NCBI RefSeq assembly: GCF_040419245.1
Contig: NZ_JAZHOH010000001.1
Span: forward strand, 2,046,001 to 2,110,000
Length of the DNA stretch: 64,000 bases
Reading direction: 5' to 3'
From: Ewingella sp. CoE-038-23
Lineage (GTDB): Bacteria; Pseudomonadota; Gammaproteobacteria; Enterobacterales; Enterobacteriaceae
Program-made: the position numbers and the translations under genes
Notes under the pieces: model-generated
What the model was told of the DNA's origin: nothing
Seen by the model: the letters and a program-made list of their open reading frames with translations, nothing else
Databases searched by the model: none
Part shown: piece after piece, positions 19,084 to 56,750 of the stretch
Numbering within the stretch: position 1 is the stretch's first letter
Layout of the letters: every line of letters starts with the position of its first letter

Positions 19084-19194
19084 TTAAGGTCAAAACCTTG
19101 CGTTGCCACGCAAACTGGCCTTTAAGGTCAAGGTCGTGCGCTGACGCCACACCGGCCTTAAGGTCAAAACCTTGCGCTGCCACGCAAACTGGCC
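19084..19194. repeat. Three tandem 37-bp units, each with an inverted repeat
   Basis: Units start at 19084, 19121 and 19158, with period exactly 37. Each runs from (T)TTAAGGTCAA to ..GGCC. The first and third differ at one base; the middle one swaps the hairpin (TTGCG..CGCAA in 1 and 3, GTGCG..GCCAC in 2). No unique spacers, so not a CRISPR. They form the outer end of repeat copy A. Confidence 0.85.
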
Positions 19195-19436
19195 CAAAGG
19201 GTTTTAAACGAAACCCTTTGGAATCCTGCGTTTTTTTGCTGCTGAAAGATCGAGGCTTCGCAGGGTCGGAATGGACGTGTTCCAGCGGCCAAAAATGATC
19301 GCCGCGAAGTGCCGCCGCTTAGGCGGTTCCCTCGCGGCGGGATTCCAACCCGCGAAAAAAGACTCGCGGTTTTCCACCTCTTGCTCGGCGTCACTTCTGA
19401 ATGCGGCCTACTGGCATTTCAACCGTGCCTTTTCAG
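19084..19436. repeat. Structured intergenic repeat, copy A (single monomer)
   Basis: One monomer of the family seen also at 23954-24573 and 56125-56750. After the 37-bp units comes a perfect hairpin (CCAAAGGGTTT/AAACCCTTTGG with loop TAAACG, 19194-19221), a GGACGTGTTCCAG block, the CCGCTTAGGCGG palindrome and the block CACCTCTTGCTCGGCGTCAC. It lies between the convergent ends of the ROK gene and the antitoxin gene. An ORF can be read through parts of it on either strand, but the structure is better conserved than any reading frame. No transposase or target duplication was found. Confidence 0.8.
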
Positions 19437-19475
19437 GGGAGTGCTGTTCTGCATCAGTGGGTTAATGACAAAAAC

Positions 19476-19781
19476 TCACTTTTCACTGAAAGGCTGAAAG
19501 ACAAACATGCCGCCGACGGCTTGGGCGTAGCGGGCCACGGTTTCTAAGTTGGGGGAGACCACGCCGTTTTCCATGCGGCTGATGTTTTGCTTTTTCATCC
19601 CGGTTTTTTCCGCAATGTCTTCTTGGGTGAGGTTGAGCGCCTGCCGGGCCTGTTTGAGCTGTGCCAGCATCGCTTGGCGAATTTCAATGGCGTCGAAGGC
19701 CGCGCGAACCTGCGGATTTTTTAGTGCTTCATCCATGACCTGCTGAAGTGGCAACAGATCGTTCTCGTTTTTAATCGCCAT
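19476..19781 (-). CDS. XRE-family antitoxin (HigA-like)
   Basis: The 101-residue protein has an N-terminal helix region and a C-terminal helix-turn-helix of the Cro/CI type (LNLTQEDIAEKTGMKKQNIS, about residues 50-70). HigA-type antitoxins bind their own promoter and neutralise the HigB ribonuclease. It starts 1 bp after the stop of the toxin gene, giving the toxin-first order typical of higBA. Because the toxin has an internal stop, this antitoxin is probably an orphan, possibly kept as a repressor. ATG 19781 has an AGGTC/GGAGG ribosome site inside the toxin 3' end. Confidence 0.85.
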   Translation of the reverse strand: MAIKNENDLLPLQQVMDEALKNPQVRAAFDAIEIRQAMLAQLKQARQALNLTQEDIAEKTGMKKQNISRMENGVVSPNLETVARYAQAVGGMFVFQPFSEK

Positions 19782-23059: not shown

Positions 23060-23809
23060 TTAAAGAGCAAAAGGAACAACGCGGGAAGGTTCAATATGGT
23101 CAAGTCGCGCGATCTGGCCGTGCTCCATGCGAGCCACGCAGTGCGCCAAGGCTTGGGCTTCTTGCGGGTCATGGGTGACGTAAACCGCCGTAGTGCCCAG
23201 CTGACGCAGGAGCACCGCCATCTCTTCACACAGGGTTTCGCGCAGGTGACGGTCGAGGTTGGAGAGAGGTTCGTCGAACAGCAGGATTTGCGGCTCGGCG
23301 ACAATCGCCCGCGCCAGCGCCACGCGCTGCTGCTGCCCGCCAGAAAGCTCAGCAGGGCGGCGTGCGGCGAAATCCGCTAACCCCACGCGCTCGAGGGTTG
23401 CCATCACGCGCTGCTTTTGCTCCGCTCCGCGCACGCCGCGCATCTGCAAGGGAAACGCGACGTTCTGCATCACGCTCATGTGCGGCCAAAGCGCGTAATC
23501 CTGAAACGCCATGCCCAACGAGCGTTTCTCCGGCGGCAAGCTAAAGCGACCGGCAGCTACGCGAGTGGCACCAAAGTGGATCTCACCCGATGACGGATGC
23601 AGCAGTCCGGCTAACAGTTTCAGCAGCGTACTTTTCCCGCAGCCCGAAGGGCCGAGCAGGGCGATGATGGTACCTTTCGGCACCTCGAGATTGACGTGAT
23701 TGAGTACCCGATTTGCCCCAAATTGGTAACAAACCTGATGAACAGCGATTGCGGGCAAGGAAGACGCGCAGGGGCGCGATCCCAGAGCCGCAAGGTCTGG
23801 AGTGGTCAT
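23060..23809 (-). CDS. ABC transporter ATP-binding protein (iron/polyamine type)
   Basis: The 249-residue ATPase has Walker A (GPSGCGKST), Q-loop (AFQDYALWPHMSV), signature LSGGQQQR, Walker B (ILLFDEPLSNLDRHLR) and H-loop (YVTHDPQEAQAL). FbpC- or PotA-like relatives are usually about 350 residues with a C-terminal regulatory OB domain; this one ends after the nucleotide-binding domain, so it probably lacks that control domain. First gene of the importer operon. Its upstream region is occupied by the structured repeat copy B. Confidence 0.85.
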   Translation of the reverse strand: MTTPDLAALGSRPCASSLPAIAVHQVCYQFGANRVLNHVNLEVPKGTIIALLGPSGCGKSTLLKLLAGLLHPSSGEIHFGATRVAAGRFSLPPEKRSLGMAFQDYALWPHMSVMQNVAFPLQMRGVRGAEQKQRVMATLERVGLADFAARRPAELSGGQQQRVALARAIVAEPQILLFDEPLSNLDRHLRETLCEEMAVLLRQLGTTAVYVTHDPQEAQALAHCVARMEHGQIARLDHIEPSRVVPFAL

Positions 23810-23953
23810 GGGAACTATCCTCTTTGGGATTTAATGTATCGCTGGAGCTTAAAGGGGATTGATGAAGGATTTATGACTGTTGGGGGAAACAGTCGGCGTC
23901 GCTTTTTAGCCTTGGGCAGCGGCCCAAACGCGCTTTTAAATTCAAATTCAACT

Positions 23954-24573
23954 TCAAGGTCGTGGGCGTCGGCCCACACCGTTTTAAGGTCAAGGTCGTG
24001 CGCTGCCGCCACACAGGCCTCAAGGGGCGCCTATCGCCGCGCCCCTCAAGACTCCCAGGCTCTTTACTGCGCGCTTCGCTCGTGAGGCGGACGTGTTTCA
24101 GGGACTTCCGTTATCCACCGCAAAATGTCGCCGCTTAGGCGGTGCCTTCGCCACGGGATTCGAGCCTTTGGTCTCGAACCTCTCGCTCAGCGCCATTTTT
24201 GACTGCGGTTTTGAGGCATTTCGACCGTGCCGTTTCAGTGAAGTTCTATTCGGCTCCTCCCCCTGACAAGAGGGAGGAGCAAGGCAATAACAAACAGAAA
24301 ACCTGAAAAGGCACGGTGTAAAAGCCAGTAGGTCGCGTTCAGAAGTGACGCCGAGCAAGAGGTGGAAAACCGCGAGTCTTTTTTCGCGGGTTCTAATCCC
24401 GCAGCGAGGGAACCGCCTAAGCGGCGGCACTTCGCGGCGATCATTTTGGCGGCTGGAACACGTCCATTCCGACCCTGCGCAGCCTCGATCTCACAAAAGA
24501 AAAAACGCAGGGTTCCAAGGGAGGCGCGTTTACGCCTCCCTTGGTCGGTGTGGGCCGACGCCCACGACCTTGA
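23954..24573. repeat. Structured intergenic repeat, copy B (inverted pair of monomers)
   Basis: A 620-bp element bounded by perfect 28-bp terminal inverted repeats (23954-23981 and 24546-24573; ends TCAAGGTCGTGGGCG...). Each half is a diverged monomer; they meet tail to tail around a spacer that includes a purine/pyrimidine hairpin (24253-24280). Left half hairpin: AGGGGCGC/GCGCCCCT. Right half: CCAAGGGAGGCG/CGCCTCCCTTGG with loop CGTTTA. No transposase, and no target duplication was recognised. It fills the 795-bp gap between the iron-type ATPase gene start and the bcsG end. Confidence 0.85.
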
Positions 24574-24604
24574 CCTTAAAGCAGCTCAAAGGGCTGCCCC
24601 TTAT

Positions 24605-26263
24605 TCACTGTGGATAGGGAACCCAGCTCCCGCCATTCAACCGGATGTAGAACTTCCCTTGATACTCCATGACCACGGCGTTCTCGTTTTCTGACACCCT
24701 TGGGGTTTCAGGCAGGTTGCCGCTGAGGGTTGGCCAGTCGACGGTGGGAGAGGTGAACAGCTTGCCGTCCACGGCGCGGGAGACCAGCTCGGAGAGGGCC
24801 AGATAGCTACTGGGTTGATCGATTTTCAGCGGCGTGGCTGGGTGCGGGGACTGCATACCGAAGAACTTCACGCCGACGGGAATGTGGGTGATGCTCGGGC
24901 TTGGGATATCGCGCAGGCCGGAGATCTGCATCTTATCTCCTGCTAAGGCCGCACCGTGCTCGGGTACCACCACCAGCATCACTTTACGGCCAGACTTCTC
25001 CAGCTGATCCATAAAAGTATTCAGTTGAGCGAACAGCGTCTCGGCGCGGGTGCGGTAATCCGCCGGTTTATTGGTGCCGACGTAACGGTTGCCGTCGTGT
25101 AGCGGCACGAGGTTGAAGAAAGTCGCGGTGCGATTACTGCCGGCTTTCTGCTGATTCTCCAGCCAGCGGGTGAATAACTGACCGTCGTTGTAGATTGGCG
25201 AACCGTCGAAAGAGGTCAGATTATGGCCCAGCCCGGCTTGCGACATCAGTGGTGCCTGCAACCCAGCATCTTTGCGTAAGTCTTTAATATAGTTGCCAAA
25301 CTCACCGGTGTGATCCATCGCCAACTGGGAACCAAAACCCAGGCGCGCGAGATCGTCAAACAGGTAACATTTCTGGCCAGAGGTTTGATACAAATCGTGG
25401 TGCGACGTCTGGCCACAGCTGGCGCGCAGCAGGCGAATCGAGGCCGGGCCGCTGTAGGAGGTGGCGGAGTTAAAATTGCTGAACACCATGTCGAAGCGCG
25501 ACCAGAGCGGAGAATTCGCCAGATTGGCGGCATCCAGATCCGACCACGCCAGCGAACAGATGTTGATCACTAACAGATCAAACGGCTGGGCGTCGGCGGG
25601 CAGAGCTTCAGGGAATAGCGTCTGACGAGTGCGCTCGCGCTGATAGAACTGCTCTAAATAGGCATTCAGATTTTCATTAGTTGGCGGCCCGCTGACGGTA
25701 TTGGGCAGGGATTCGCCACTGCGCGGTTGAGCCACCGGCTGGCTGACTGGGGTGGAAATGTTCGCCACGGCTTTCGCTTCGGGCGATGACCAGCCCGGCA
25801 GCACCAGCAGGCTGACATTCAGCCAGACCAGTACCGCCACGGTTAGCGTGGTGATGCGGATCCACTGCGCCACAAACAGATAAGCCACCAGCAGCACAAA
25901 GGCTACGCCAACCCACTGCCAGTTAATAAAGCGGTCGGCCAACTCGAGCAGGTAGTCGAGGCTAAATCCGCTGACGTCGCCGCCCTGACTGACGATGGTG
26001 CGCCAGCCCGGCAGCCAGGTGTCGTGATAAAACAGCCCTAAACCAAACGGCAGGGCCAGCCAGTGTCGCCAGCGATGCAGGCGCAGAGACGGCAGGGGGA
26101 ACAGCAGGCAGGCGGCAAAAATCAGGTTGCCGATGGCGTCGAAATTGAGATAACCCTGCCAAAGCAGAATAAATTTCAGCAGAAAATAGTAATTCCATGC
26201 CCCAAGACCACGCCAGGATTGCCACAGGGGAAGGCGAGATGCGTTTAATTTGTTGTTATTCAT
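24605..26263 (-). CDS. bcsG: Cellulose biosynthesis protein BcsG (phosphoethanolamine transferase)
   Basis: The 552-residue inner-membrane protein has an N-terminal set of four or five helices and a periplasmic alkaline-phosphatase-fold domain (from about residue 200). The catalytic region TSYSGPASIRLLRASCGQ holds the expected Ser nucleophile, and the metal-site motif VPEHGAAL is present. In E. coli this enzyme adds phosphoethanolamine to cellulose. Its start overlaps the bcsF stop by 4 bp in the bcsEFG operon. Length matches E. coli (559), no breaks. It suggests modified cellulose is made if the rest of the operon works. Confidence 0.93.
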   Translation of the reverse strand: MNNNKLNASRLPLWQSWRGLGAWNYYFLLKFILLWQGYLNFDAIGNLIFAACLLFPLPSLRLHRWRHWLALPFGLGLFYHDTWLPGWRTIVSQGGDVSGFSLDYLLELADRFINWQWVGVAFVLLVAYLFVAQWIRITTLTVAVLVWLNVSLLVLPGWSSPEAKAVANISTPVSQPVAQPRSGESLPNTVSGPPTNENLNAYLEQFYQRERTRQTLFPEALPADAQPFDLLVINICSLAWSDLDAANLANSPLWSRFDMVFSNFNSATSYSGPASIRLLRASCGQTSHHDLYQTSGQKCYLFDDLARLGFGSQLAMDHTGEFGNYIKDLRKDAGLQAPLMSQAGLGHNLTSFDGSPIYNDGQLFTRWLENQQKAGSNRTATFFNLVPLHDGNRYVGTNKPADYRTRAETLFAQLNTFMDQLEKSGRKVMLVVVPEHGAALAGDKMQISGLRDIPSPSITHIPVGVKFFGMQSPHPATPLKIDQPSSYLALSELVSRAVDGKLFTSPTVDWPTLSGNLPETPRVSENENAVVMEYQGKFYIRLNGGSWVPYPQ

Positions 26264-48357: not shown

Positions 48358-48570
48358 ATGTAAGCGAGACAGGTGAAATGGCGCAAAACCGCAGATCCGC
48401 GAGCAGCACAATGACAGCGCCAAAGCCCCAGATTCTACGTACCCTTATCTAGGTGCGCATAATGTATATTATGTTAAATTTAATATCATAGCGTACCAGC
48501 CTGACTGGCTTACCTCATCCCCTGTTGTTTTCCATGGCTTATTTTATGATTCGGTCCTTTTTATTTAGCA

Positions 48571-56124: not shown

Positions 56125-56750
56125 TCAAGGTCGTGGGCTCGCCGCCCACACTGGCTGGAACCTTGCGTTGCCACGCAAACTGGTCTTTAAGGTCAAAACC
56201 GTGCGCTGCCGCCACACCGGCCTCAAGGGGCGCCTATCGCCGCGCCCCTTGAGAATCCCCGGCTCTTTACTGCGCGCTTCGCTCGCTGGGTGGACGTGTT
56301 TCAGGTACTCCTGTTCTCCACCGCAAAATGTCGCCGCTTAGGCGGTGCCTTCGCTTCAGGCTTCGAGCCTTTGGTCTCGAACCGTTCGCTCAGCGCCATT
56401 TTTGACTGCGGTTTTGAGGCATTTCAACCGTACCGTTTCACTGGGCTTTGTTTTGGGTTTAGTTTTTTTACGAATTGAATGAGACGGTTCGGTGTAAATG
56501 CCAGTAGGTCGCGTTCAGAAGTGACGCCGAGCAAGAGGTGGAAAACCGCGTGGCTTTTTACGCGGGTTGGAATCCCGCCGCGAGGGGACCGCCTAAGCGG
56601 CGGCACTTCGCGACGAGCACTGAGGCCGCTGAAACACGTCCATTCCAACTCTGCGCAGCCTCGATCTCACAGCAAGAAAAAACGCAGGGTTCCAAGGGAG
56701 GCGCGTTTACGCCTCCCTTGGTCGGTGTGGGCCGACGCCCACGGTTTTGA
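56125..56750. repeat. Structured intergenic repeat, copy C (inverted pair of monomers)
   Basis: A 626-bp inverted pair with the same plan as copy B. Left half: outer GTGGGC..GCCCAC, hairpin CTCAAGGGGCGC/GCGCCCCTTGAG (56222-56253), GGACGTGTTTCAG, CCGCTTAGGCGG. Right half: hairpin CCAAGGGAGGCG/CGCCTCCCTTGG, loop CGTTTA (56692-56721), and outer CGGTGTGGGCCGACGCCCAC. The terminal repeats (56125 on, 56723-56750) are imperfect. It fills the convergent gap between the ynfD-like gene and cbl. An extra TTGCGTTGCCACGCAA hairpin lies near its left end. Confidence 0.85.

What the first reader, a model, noticed from the sequence alone, without database searches (positions are those of the whole stretch)
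23954..24573. 620-bp intergenic element with perfect 28-bp terminal inverted repeats
Seen directly: the first and last 28 bases are exact reverse complements, and the two halves are diverged copies of one monomer meeting tail to tail. No transposase or obvious target duplication is present. The element stands between two unrelated operons. It may be a non-autonomous mobile repeat, a structured RNA pair or a chromosome-organising element, and I know no name for it.
Basis: partly seen in the sequence, partly recalled or inferred. Interest (0 to 1): 0.75.

Follow-up and report, generated by a model that had tools for sequence, protein, structure and literature searches.

The report
Mosaic palindromic repeat between converging genes
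The 620-base element is one of about forty copies of an apparently undescribed family of large patchwork palindromes that mostly sit between converging genes, crowd around the point where chromosome replication ends in several species, and often stay in place while their hairpin pieces are swapped.

Summary
In detail: perfect 28-bp end repeats, two diverged halves tail to tail, no gene. The 28-bp repeats do not define the family: only 3 of 29 typed sister copies have the same outermost hairpin at both ends. The host is an Ewingella near E. americana ATCC 33852; its genome holds at least 40 loci. The family is in 6 of 6 genomes of that genus and 14 of 14 Rahnella, and a structure model finds it in a third genus; no match inside it in E. 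coli or phage records. Each half is a chain of hairpins plus a three-way junction whose stems covary almost purely by Watson-Crick double changes. An element pairs two unlike arms (139 pairs, never above 78% identical). In the own genome 27 of 39 copies lie between converging genes (background 17%). Copies crowd around dif, about 50 per Mb against 0-6 elsewhere in two chromosomes; weaker or unclear in others. Many sites are shared between species while hairpins are swapped in place; at one site two relatives have only a terminator-like hairpin. No REP transposase is linked. Best reading: a vertically kept, BIME-like mosaic at 3' ends of convergent genes, shaped by DNA-level hairpin processes. 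Function and spreading mechanism are inferred.

The parts
23911..23937 (+). outer small hairpin TTGGGCAGCGGCCCAA followed by GCGCTTTT, the outermost recurring piece on the left
   Evidence: sequence; a hairpin + GCTTTTAAA layout recurs in flanks of many sister copies
23938..23953 (+). hexamer tract (AAATTC)n at the left end
   Evidence: sequence; same tract at the ends of many copies
23983..24017 (+). second left cap hairpin (type c, GTGCGCTGCCGCCAC)
24021..24049 (+). left arm H2 hairpin, type A (AAGGGGCG...CGCCCCT)
24093..24209 (+). left arm core: TGTTTCAG box and three-way junction (stem P1 around hairpins H3 and H4)
24253..24280 (+). central hairpin GCTCCTCCCCC...GGGAGGAGC in the variable centre
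24332..24461 (-). right arm core (second arm lineage), inverted: TGTTCCAG box and three-way junction carrying the alternative H4 module AACCGCG...CGCGGGTT
24515..24544 (-). right arm H2 hairpin, type B (CCAAGGGAGGCG...CGCCTCCCTTGG)
19086..19437 (-). second copy in the window: one arm only (half element) with three cap hairpins
   Evidence: (G000 2065121-2065437)
56186..56743 (+). third copy in the window, two arms, between convergent genes; the site is empty in two relatives
   Evidence: (G000 2102186-2102743)
48452..48479 (+). perfect match to the E. coli dif consensus (consensus recalled): the reference point for the clustering
24605..26263 (-). bcsG-like gene whose 3' end faces the element (stop 32 nt from the right cap)
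23060..23809 (-). ABC transporter ATPase gene (named from its sequence by recall) whose 5' end faces the element

Best explanation
It is a member of an apparently undescribed family of large (about 520-700 bp) mosaic extragenic palindromic elements of Ewingella, Rahnella and at least one more genus of the same GTDB family. A full element joins two different arm lineages tail to tail; each arm is a hexamer tract, one or more small cap hairpins, a G+C-rich hairpin, a TGTTTCAG box and a three-way junction. It carries no enzyme. Many copies are inherited in place for long times, mainly in the gap between the 3' ends of convergent genes; at the one fully empty site that I read, two other species have a plain terminator-like hairpin instead. 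The transcript arriving from either side meets an arm in the same orientation. Likely action (inferred): a two-sided 3'-end structure that protects or delimits both transcripts. Likely evolution (partly shown): hairpin modules are exchanged in place, and stems are kept perfectly paired by DNA-level template switching or gene conversion between copies. Unlike arms are kept either because the heterodimer is inherited as one unit or because near-identical arms would make an unstable perfect palindrome.
For: Family and range: 40 listed loci in the own genome; 6 of 6 genomes of the own genus, 14 of 14 Rahnella; third genus by structure model and by reading. Place: 27 of 39 own loci convergent, 10 tandem, 2 divergent, against 17% convergent in 385 kb sampled. 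Structure: 95.5% of 617 cells paired, 60 double changes against 17.5 in shuffles (0 of 500), only 11 G-U cells. Heterodimer: 139 inverted pairs, arm identity median 0.70, maximum 0.78; 27 of 27 fully typed own pairs have unlike H2 hairpins, where 7.1 alike would be expected under random pairing; 23 of 29 own pairs join arm class I with class II. In-place module swaps: the bcsG site and the 19.1-kb site against E. americana. Shared sites: 17 of 40 own sites have an arm between both conserved flanks on one locus of a species other than ATCC 33852, flanks 71-85% identical. Empty site with terminator-like hairpins, and a relic site.
Against: No transcript or protein data. No intrinsic terminator or promoter was found in the element by the scan, so a direct terminator role is unsupported. 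12 of 39 loci are not convergent, the window's own copy among them. The scarcity of G-U pairs argues against selection on an RNA. Crowding around dif is not explained by a 3'-end role: convergent gaps are about as dense near dif as in the origin half, 16.2 against 13.0 per 100 kb. The count looked only at loci already known to hold an element, so it overstates how often sites are shared; in the unselected dif blocks, of comparable sites in more distant genomes 1 was occupied (G003) and 5 were empty, one of these with a relic.
Confidence: 0.48

Rival explanations
1. A chromosome-organising array: the elements are landmarks of the replication terminus region, bound by a protein or acting as DNA structures where forks converge, and selection keeps them near dif.
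For: Listed loci crowd around dif in the own genome (12 of 40 within 2.5% of the chromosome either side, 2 expected; KS p 1e-7), in G415 (25 loci, KS p 7e-6) and G413 (38 loci, KS p 1.4e-5). HMM scan of stretches: 48.6 per Mb within 5% of dif against 0-6 elsewhere in G000, 50 against 0 in G415 (p 2e-5 and 1e-4).
Against: Weak in G408, the only nearly complete chromosome of the four tested with every first-look candidate scored (15 loci, KS p 0.022); G339 was searched but not tested (its contig is 2.7 Mb). Around dif G003 has 2 and G001 1 element per 100 kb, not clearly above average. Grid stretches without the dif blocks are not significant (p 0.49 and 0.064). No matS-like site (up to 2 mismatches) in 39 elements. 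Related sequences occur on Rahnella megaplasmids. The terminus may simply tolerate insertions; no control family was mapped.
Confidence: 0.15
2. A MITE-like non-autonomous transposon moved in trans by an unidentified transposase.
For: Dispersed copies, occupied and empty orthologous sites, no conserved ORF, end repeats.
Against: Ends usually differ (3 of 29 share the outermost cap); no target duplication evident at the empty site read (by eye, two species); no Y1 transposase in the own genome, and none linked to the family at the 6 loci fetched of 19 listed matches elsewhere; many sites shared across species. Other transposase families were not searched.
Confidence: 0.22
3. A pair of structured non-coding RNAs or riboregulators, one per arm.
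For: Deep covariation of a three-way junction across genera; 3' position next to genes. In the larger set of 111 arms, the 18 junction and H3 pairs have 10 G-U but 37 A-C cells (my sum), a slight lean towards the strand read from centre outwards.
Against: G-U pairs are rare (11 of 617 cells; 10 of about 1,866) and in the 37-arm set neither strand is favoured (at least 9 A-C cells, which would be G-U on the other strand). No Rfam match, no promoter found. Template switching can make and maintain such stems without RNA selection (PMC8794818, abstract read).
Confidence: 0.12

Closest known systems
REP sequences and BIMEs (bacterial interspersed mosaic elements)
   Same: Extragenic, mosaic, inverted hairpin units, mostly downstream of genes between convergent or tandem ORFs (PMC3733652, passages read).
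   Different: Unit is a 200-300 nt multi-hairpin arm, not 20-40 nt; no GTAG or CGTC tag at the end of the caps (by eye); no linked RAYT; stems show few G-U pairs, whereas that paper cites the frequency of G-T pairing in REP stems; two unlike arms; crowding around dif.
Enterobacterial MITE-like repeats (ERIC, YPAL) and EFAR of enterococci
   Same: Non-coding dispersed palindromic elements near genes, listed as MITEs in PMC3733652 (passage).
   Different: Those families were not compared by sequence directly; of 5,426 E. coli genomes none had a match inside the element. Details of YPAL and EFAR are recalled only; the YPAL paper is not held.
matS/MatP and other terminus-region DNA signals
   Same: Repeated sequence concentrated around dif.
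   Different: No matS-like motif in 39 elements; far larger and palindromic; a protein partner is unknown.
Quasipalindromes maintained by template switching
   Same: Near-perfect stems with double changes and few intermediates, as template switching predicts (PMC8794818, abstract and start of introduction read).
   Different: Here it is a recurring multi-copy family with swapped modules and shared architecture across genera.

Membership tests
REP/BIME | short 20-40 nt palindromes with a GTAG (or CGTC) tag at one end | tested here: not met
   by eye on caps and arms: no tag at a cap end, unit much larger; a GTAG does occur inside the right arm of many own copies (CCAGTAGGTC) but not in all and not beside a cap
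REP/BIME | association with a RAYT (Y1 transposase) gene | tested here: not met
   PF01797 in 0 of 1 own genome and in 7 of 19 relatives; the 6 loci fetched of 19 listed matches carry no family hairpin. CGTC-type REPs lack a transposase too (PMC3733652)
REP/BIME | extragenic, mainly between convergent or tandem genes | tested here: met
   27 convergent, 10 tandem, 2 divergent of 39 own loci by crude ORF calls
MITE | terminal inverted repeats common to the copies | tested here: not met
   3 of 29 copies share the outermost cap, 0 of 29 the innermost
MITE | target-site duplication | tested here: inconclusive
   empty sites lie in species with flanks 75-82% identical, gap sequence already diverged
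MITE | relation to an autonomous element with transposase | not tested
   only PF01797 was searched genome-wide
Rfam RNA families | match above the gathering score | tested here: not met
   0 matches in the window
E. coli REP, BIME, ERIC, RIP and other E. coli repeats | sequence match in E. coli genomes | tested here: not met
   blastn of window 23800-24700: 1 of 5,426 genomes matched, and only in the bcsG part of the query
matS array | GTGACRNYGTCAC sites (recalled motif) | tested here: not met
   0 sites at up to 2 mismatches in 39 elements
Structured RNA | expressed transcript | not testable with these tools
   no RNA data at hand

The most novel reading that the evidence does not exclude
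The elements form a terminus-region system: an array of heterodimeric palindromes, concentrated where replication forks meet and placed between converging genes, that serves (or records) the collision of forks and transcripts. Hairpins formed on the lagging strand are corrected by template switching, which would keep the stems perfect and make the terminus their breeding ground.
Probability: 0.12. Interest if true: 0.85.

Novelty: new variant of a known kind. Interest (0 to 1): 0.6.

Why it matters
It adds to the extragenic palindromic repeats a large, two-armed kind without a known transposase, with a rule of unlike arms, a niche between converging genes and crowding around dif in several species. 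Covarying stems with few G-U pairs, in dozens of copies per genome, give a natural test of whether DNA template switching rather than RNA selection maintains hairpins. It also warns annotators: spurious ORFs of about 100 aa lie inside the copies, and draft contigs of a relative often end in them.

Tried and rejected
Intrinsic terminator or promoter inside the element: none found. Phage origin: no match in the phage records and none of a 20-mer in viral contigs. RAYT/IS200 link: not found. Protein-coding: stop-free runs not conserved in length. matS, Chi, IHF and DnaA motifs: none in 39 elements; KOPS-like GGGNAGGG occurs at 0.63 per kb against 0.10 in the dif block, not followed up (motifs recalled). 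Orientation of the copies relative to replication: looked at by eye, no clear bias, not tested formally. The G341 hit (32.7 bits; read) was left as doubtful.

Rows dropped or weak points: 2 of 29 typed pairs with an untyped H2 arm; locus L041 left out of the gene-orientation tally (39 of 40 loci); stretch L335 left out of the grid test because I had moved it off the grid onto known copies; stretches L213-L222 were chosen to lie between known copies and were used only for gene-orientation background; the ten origin-half stretches L223-L232 were picked by hand when the list of copies was known, and about 25 kb of the stretches overlap; without these ten the near/far test still gives p 0.003. 37 of 39 representatives went into the alignment. 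let one plasmid locus (L031) into the 'own genome' group; one search repeats it without. One search pooled loci by organism; one search repeats the count with both flanks on one locus: 17 of 40 again, with L041 in and L006 out, and one further site (L028) empty in R. rivi. The verdicts with gaps of 15-25 kb (own 2070093 and G005 12819 in G001, own 2017702 and G001 211412 in G415) are rearrangements and are not counted. One search stopped with an error after two sites had been printed with their relatives, so the EMPTY verdicts for 2065277 in G001 and 2022650 in G415 rest alone. Only 40 of 66 first-look candidates were scored in the own genome, 40 of 50 in G415 and 40 of 72 in G413.

Full report
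What is there. There is no Rfam match in the window. The element lies 32 nt downstream of a bcsG-like gene and upstream of an ABC transporter ATPase gene. The recurring unit is wider than the reported interval: outside the caps lie a hexamer tract and often a small hairpin followed by GCTTTTAAA.

Host and range. Blast of the element against the own genome gives 185 pieces, of which the listed ones merge to 40 loci. The list is not quite complete: 40 of 66 first-look candidates were scored, and the structure model later hit one more locus at 2854260. In the relatives search the family was in all 6 genomes of the own genus (own included) and in 0 of the 34 others. The 27-mer end was found in 110 stretches of the named genome collection; the 80 whose titles were listed, and the rest, are Rahnella, Ewingella, H. 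psychrotolerans or two unnamed Enterobacterales assemblies. The 17-mer cap hairpin was in 10 of 392 genomes of the family: all 6 of the own genus and 4 of the 5 then-sampled genomes of genus g51, with 3 hits of the reversed control pattern in all. Genus g51 is Rahnella, because its genome G273 matches a named R. bonaserana locus at 100%. All 14 Rahnella genomes held have the family. A covariance model of the arm core found 15 of 392 genomes: 6 of the own genus, the 5 sampled Rahnella, three genomes of a third genus (g131), and one doubtful hit (only 9 candidates scored per genome). The third-genus loci printed show the same architecture with very different letters, and one locus has three arms in direct tandem. 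No hit inside the element in 5,426 E. coli genomes, none in 50,697 phage records, none of a 20-mer in viral contigs. Ten Rahnella plasmid records have partial matches covering 10-57% of the query.

Anatomy. Sixteen full copies align over their whole length. Each arm, read from outside to centre, is: hexamer tract, one or more cap hairpins, a large G+C-rich hairpin (H2), a TGTTTCAG box, and a three-way junction made of stem P1 enclosing hairpins H3 and H4. In 37 diverse arms 95.5% of 617 pair cells are standard pairs, 11 of 18 pairs have changes on both sides, and 60 cells are double changes against 17.5 in shuffles (0 of 500 as high); further pair types are not in excess (21 against 19.3, 100 of 500). 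Sliding the partners destroys the signal: 36-47% of cells paired. Only 11 of the 617 cells are G-U, and at least 9 are A-C, which would be G-U on the other strand. In the larger set of 111 arms the 18 junction and H3 pairs have 10 G-U and 37 A-C cells of about 1,866 (my sum), a slight lean to the strand read from centre outwards; the variable H4 pairs are much less regular. REP stems, by contrast, are said to show G-T pairing often enough to suggest RNA (PMC3733652, passage). Template switching is known to create and maintain perfect stems (PMC8794818, abstract), which fits better than RNA selection; this is inference.

Unlike arms. In 139 distinct tail-to-tail pairs the two arm cores are 70% identical at the median and never more than 78%. 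In the own genome 29 pairs have median 0.71 and maximum 0.78, while arms of different elements exceed 85% in 26% of 1,624 comparisons. Of 27 own pairs with both H2 hairpins typed, none has the same type twice; random pairing expects 7.1. By motif, 23 of the 29 own pairs join arm class I with class II, 4 join class II with an unassigned arm and 2 join II with II. The simplest reading is an ancient heterodimer inherited as a unit; selection against near-perfect palindromes is the alternative.

Position. With crude ORF calls, 27 of 39 own loci lie between convergent genes, 10 between tandem and 2 between divergent ones, and facing stop codons are at a median of 60 nt. The background in 385 kb of sampled sequence is 17% convergent; 27 of 39 has p 4e-11 even against 20%. 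The window's own copy is one of the tandem ones.

Crowding near dif. A perfect dif match lies in the window at 48452-48479. Of 40 own loci, 12 lie within 2.5% of the chromosome length either side of it (2 expected) and 33 within 20% (16 expected), KS p 1e-7. Of three Rahnella chromosomes, G415 (25 loci) gives 7e-6, G413 (38 loci) 1.4e-5 and G408 (15 loci) 0.022. Because some candidates were unscored, I scanned stretches with an HMM: own genome 10 elements in 425 kb within 20% of dif against 1 in 700 kb beyond (p 4e-4; 0.003 without the ten hand-picked stretches); G415 7 in 260 kb against 0 in 240 kb (p 0.01). Without the contiguous dif blocks the grid alone is not significant (1 in 280 kb against 1 in 700 kb, p 0.49; 3 in 160 kb against 0 in 240 kb, p 0.064). 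Against generality: the 100 kb around dif hold 2 elements in G003 and 1 in G001, against 4 in G415, 3 per 50 kb in G005 and 9 per 145 kb in the own genome. Convergent gaps are only slightly denser near dif (16.2 against 13.0 per 100 kb). No control family such as prophages or IS was mapped.

History of the sites. In the 50 kb collinear with E. americana ATCC 33852 all three window elements have a counterpart and there are no others, but with changed modules. At the bcsG site E. americana lacks the left cap and has another hairpin on the right. At the 19.1-kb half copy the H4 module is of the other type. Across more distant species, 17 of 40 own sites have an arm between both conserved flanks on one locus, flanks 71-85% identical, some of them in Rahnella; one site (L028) is empty in R. 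rivi. That count looked only at loci known to hold elements. In the dif blocks, which were not chosen for elements in the relatives, own sites with both flanks found close together in G003, G001 or G415 were occupied once (2138007 in G003) and empty five times (2102296 in G003 and G001, 2065277 and 2138007 in G001, 2022650 in G415). Two sites were read in full. The 56.2-kb site (2102296) is empty in G003 and G001, where the same convergent genes are separated by a plain inverted-repeat hairpin resembling a bidirectional terminator. The 2138007 site in G001 holds what looks like a relic of H2 and cap. No target duplication was evident by eye.

Mechanism. Shown: dispersed, mostly convergent placement, many shared sites, in-place module exchange, unlike arms, stems with few G-U pairs, and an empty site with simple hairpins. 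Inferred: the element acts on both incoming transcripts as a 3'-end structure, and modules and stems are renewed by gene conversion or template switching. Unknown: how new sites are seeded, and why copies crowd near dif in several but not clearly all genomes. No promoter or terminator was found inside, and no Y1 transposase is linked.

Known or new. It works like a BIME but fails the REP tests of size, tag and RAYT link, and fails the MITE test of common ends. Literature searched in the open-access library only. Papers seen in part: PMC7281767 (passages: palindromes there are CRISPR), PMC3733652 (passages), PMC2817692 (passages), PMC8794818 (abstract, introduction start and outline), PMC12306157 (term search only: neither genus named), PMC2267715 (passages). 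None of these passages describes this family; subscription papers were not covered.

Noticed in passing
window 48452-48479: Perfect match to the E. coli dif consensus (recalled), so the window straddles the replication terminus.
   Followed up: yes
window 19086-19781: A one-armed copy next to a HigA-like antitoxin gene (19476-19781, named by recall); in E. americana the same arm is followed by other genes (an AraC-type regulator and a short-chain dehydrogenase, named by recall), so the element marks a rearrangement point.
   Followed up: partly
L237, L243, L244, L245, L246 (G005 contigs): Five draft contigs of E. americana ATCC 33852 end within about 160 nt of a copy, so the family breaks short-read assemblies and copies may be undercounted there.
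   Followed up: no
L254 (third genus, about 1050-2250): Three arms in direct tandem, each with its own hexamer tract, instead of a tail-to-tail pair.
   Followed up: no
window 24098-24430 (-) and 24362-24694 (+): Spurious ORFs of 110 codons cross the element and may be annotated as hypothetical proteins.
   Followed up: partly
L046 (Hafnia psychrotolerans genome), centre of the element: The centre between the arms carries a microsatellite run (CCCAAA)n followed by (ATTCAC)n.
   Followed up: no
39 own elements: GGGNAGGG (KOPS-like, motif recalled) is about six times denser in the elements than in the dif block, 13 sites.
   Followed up: no
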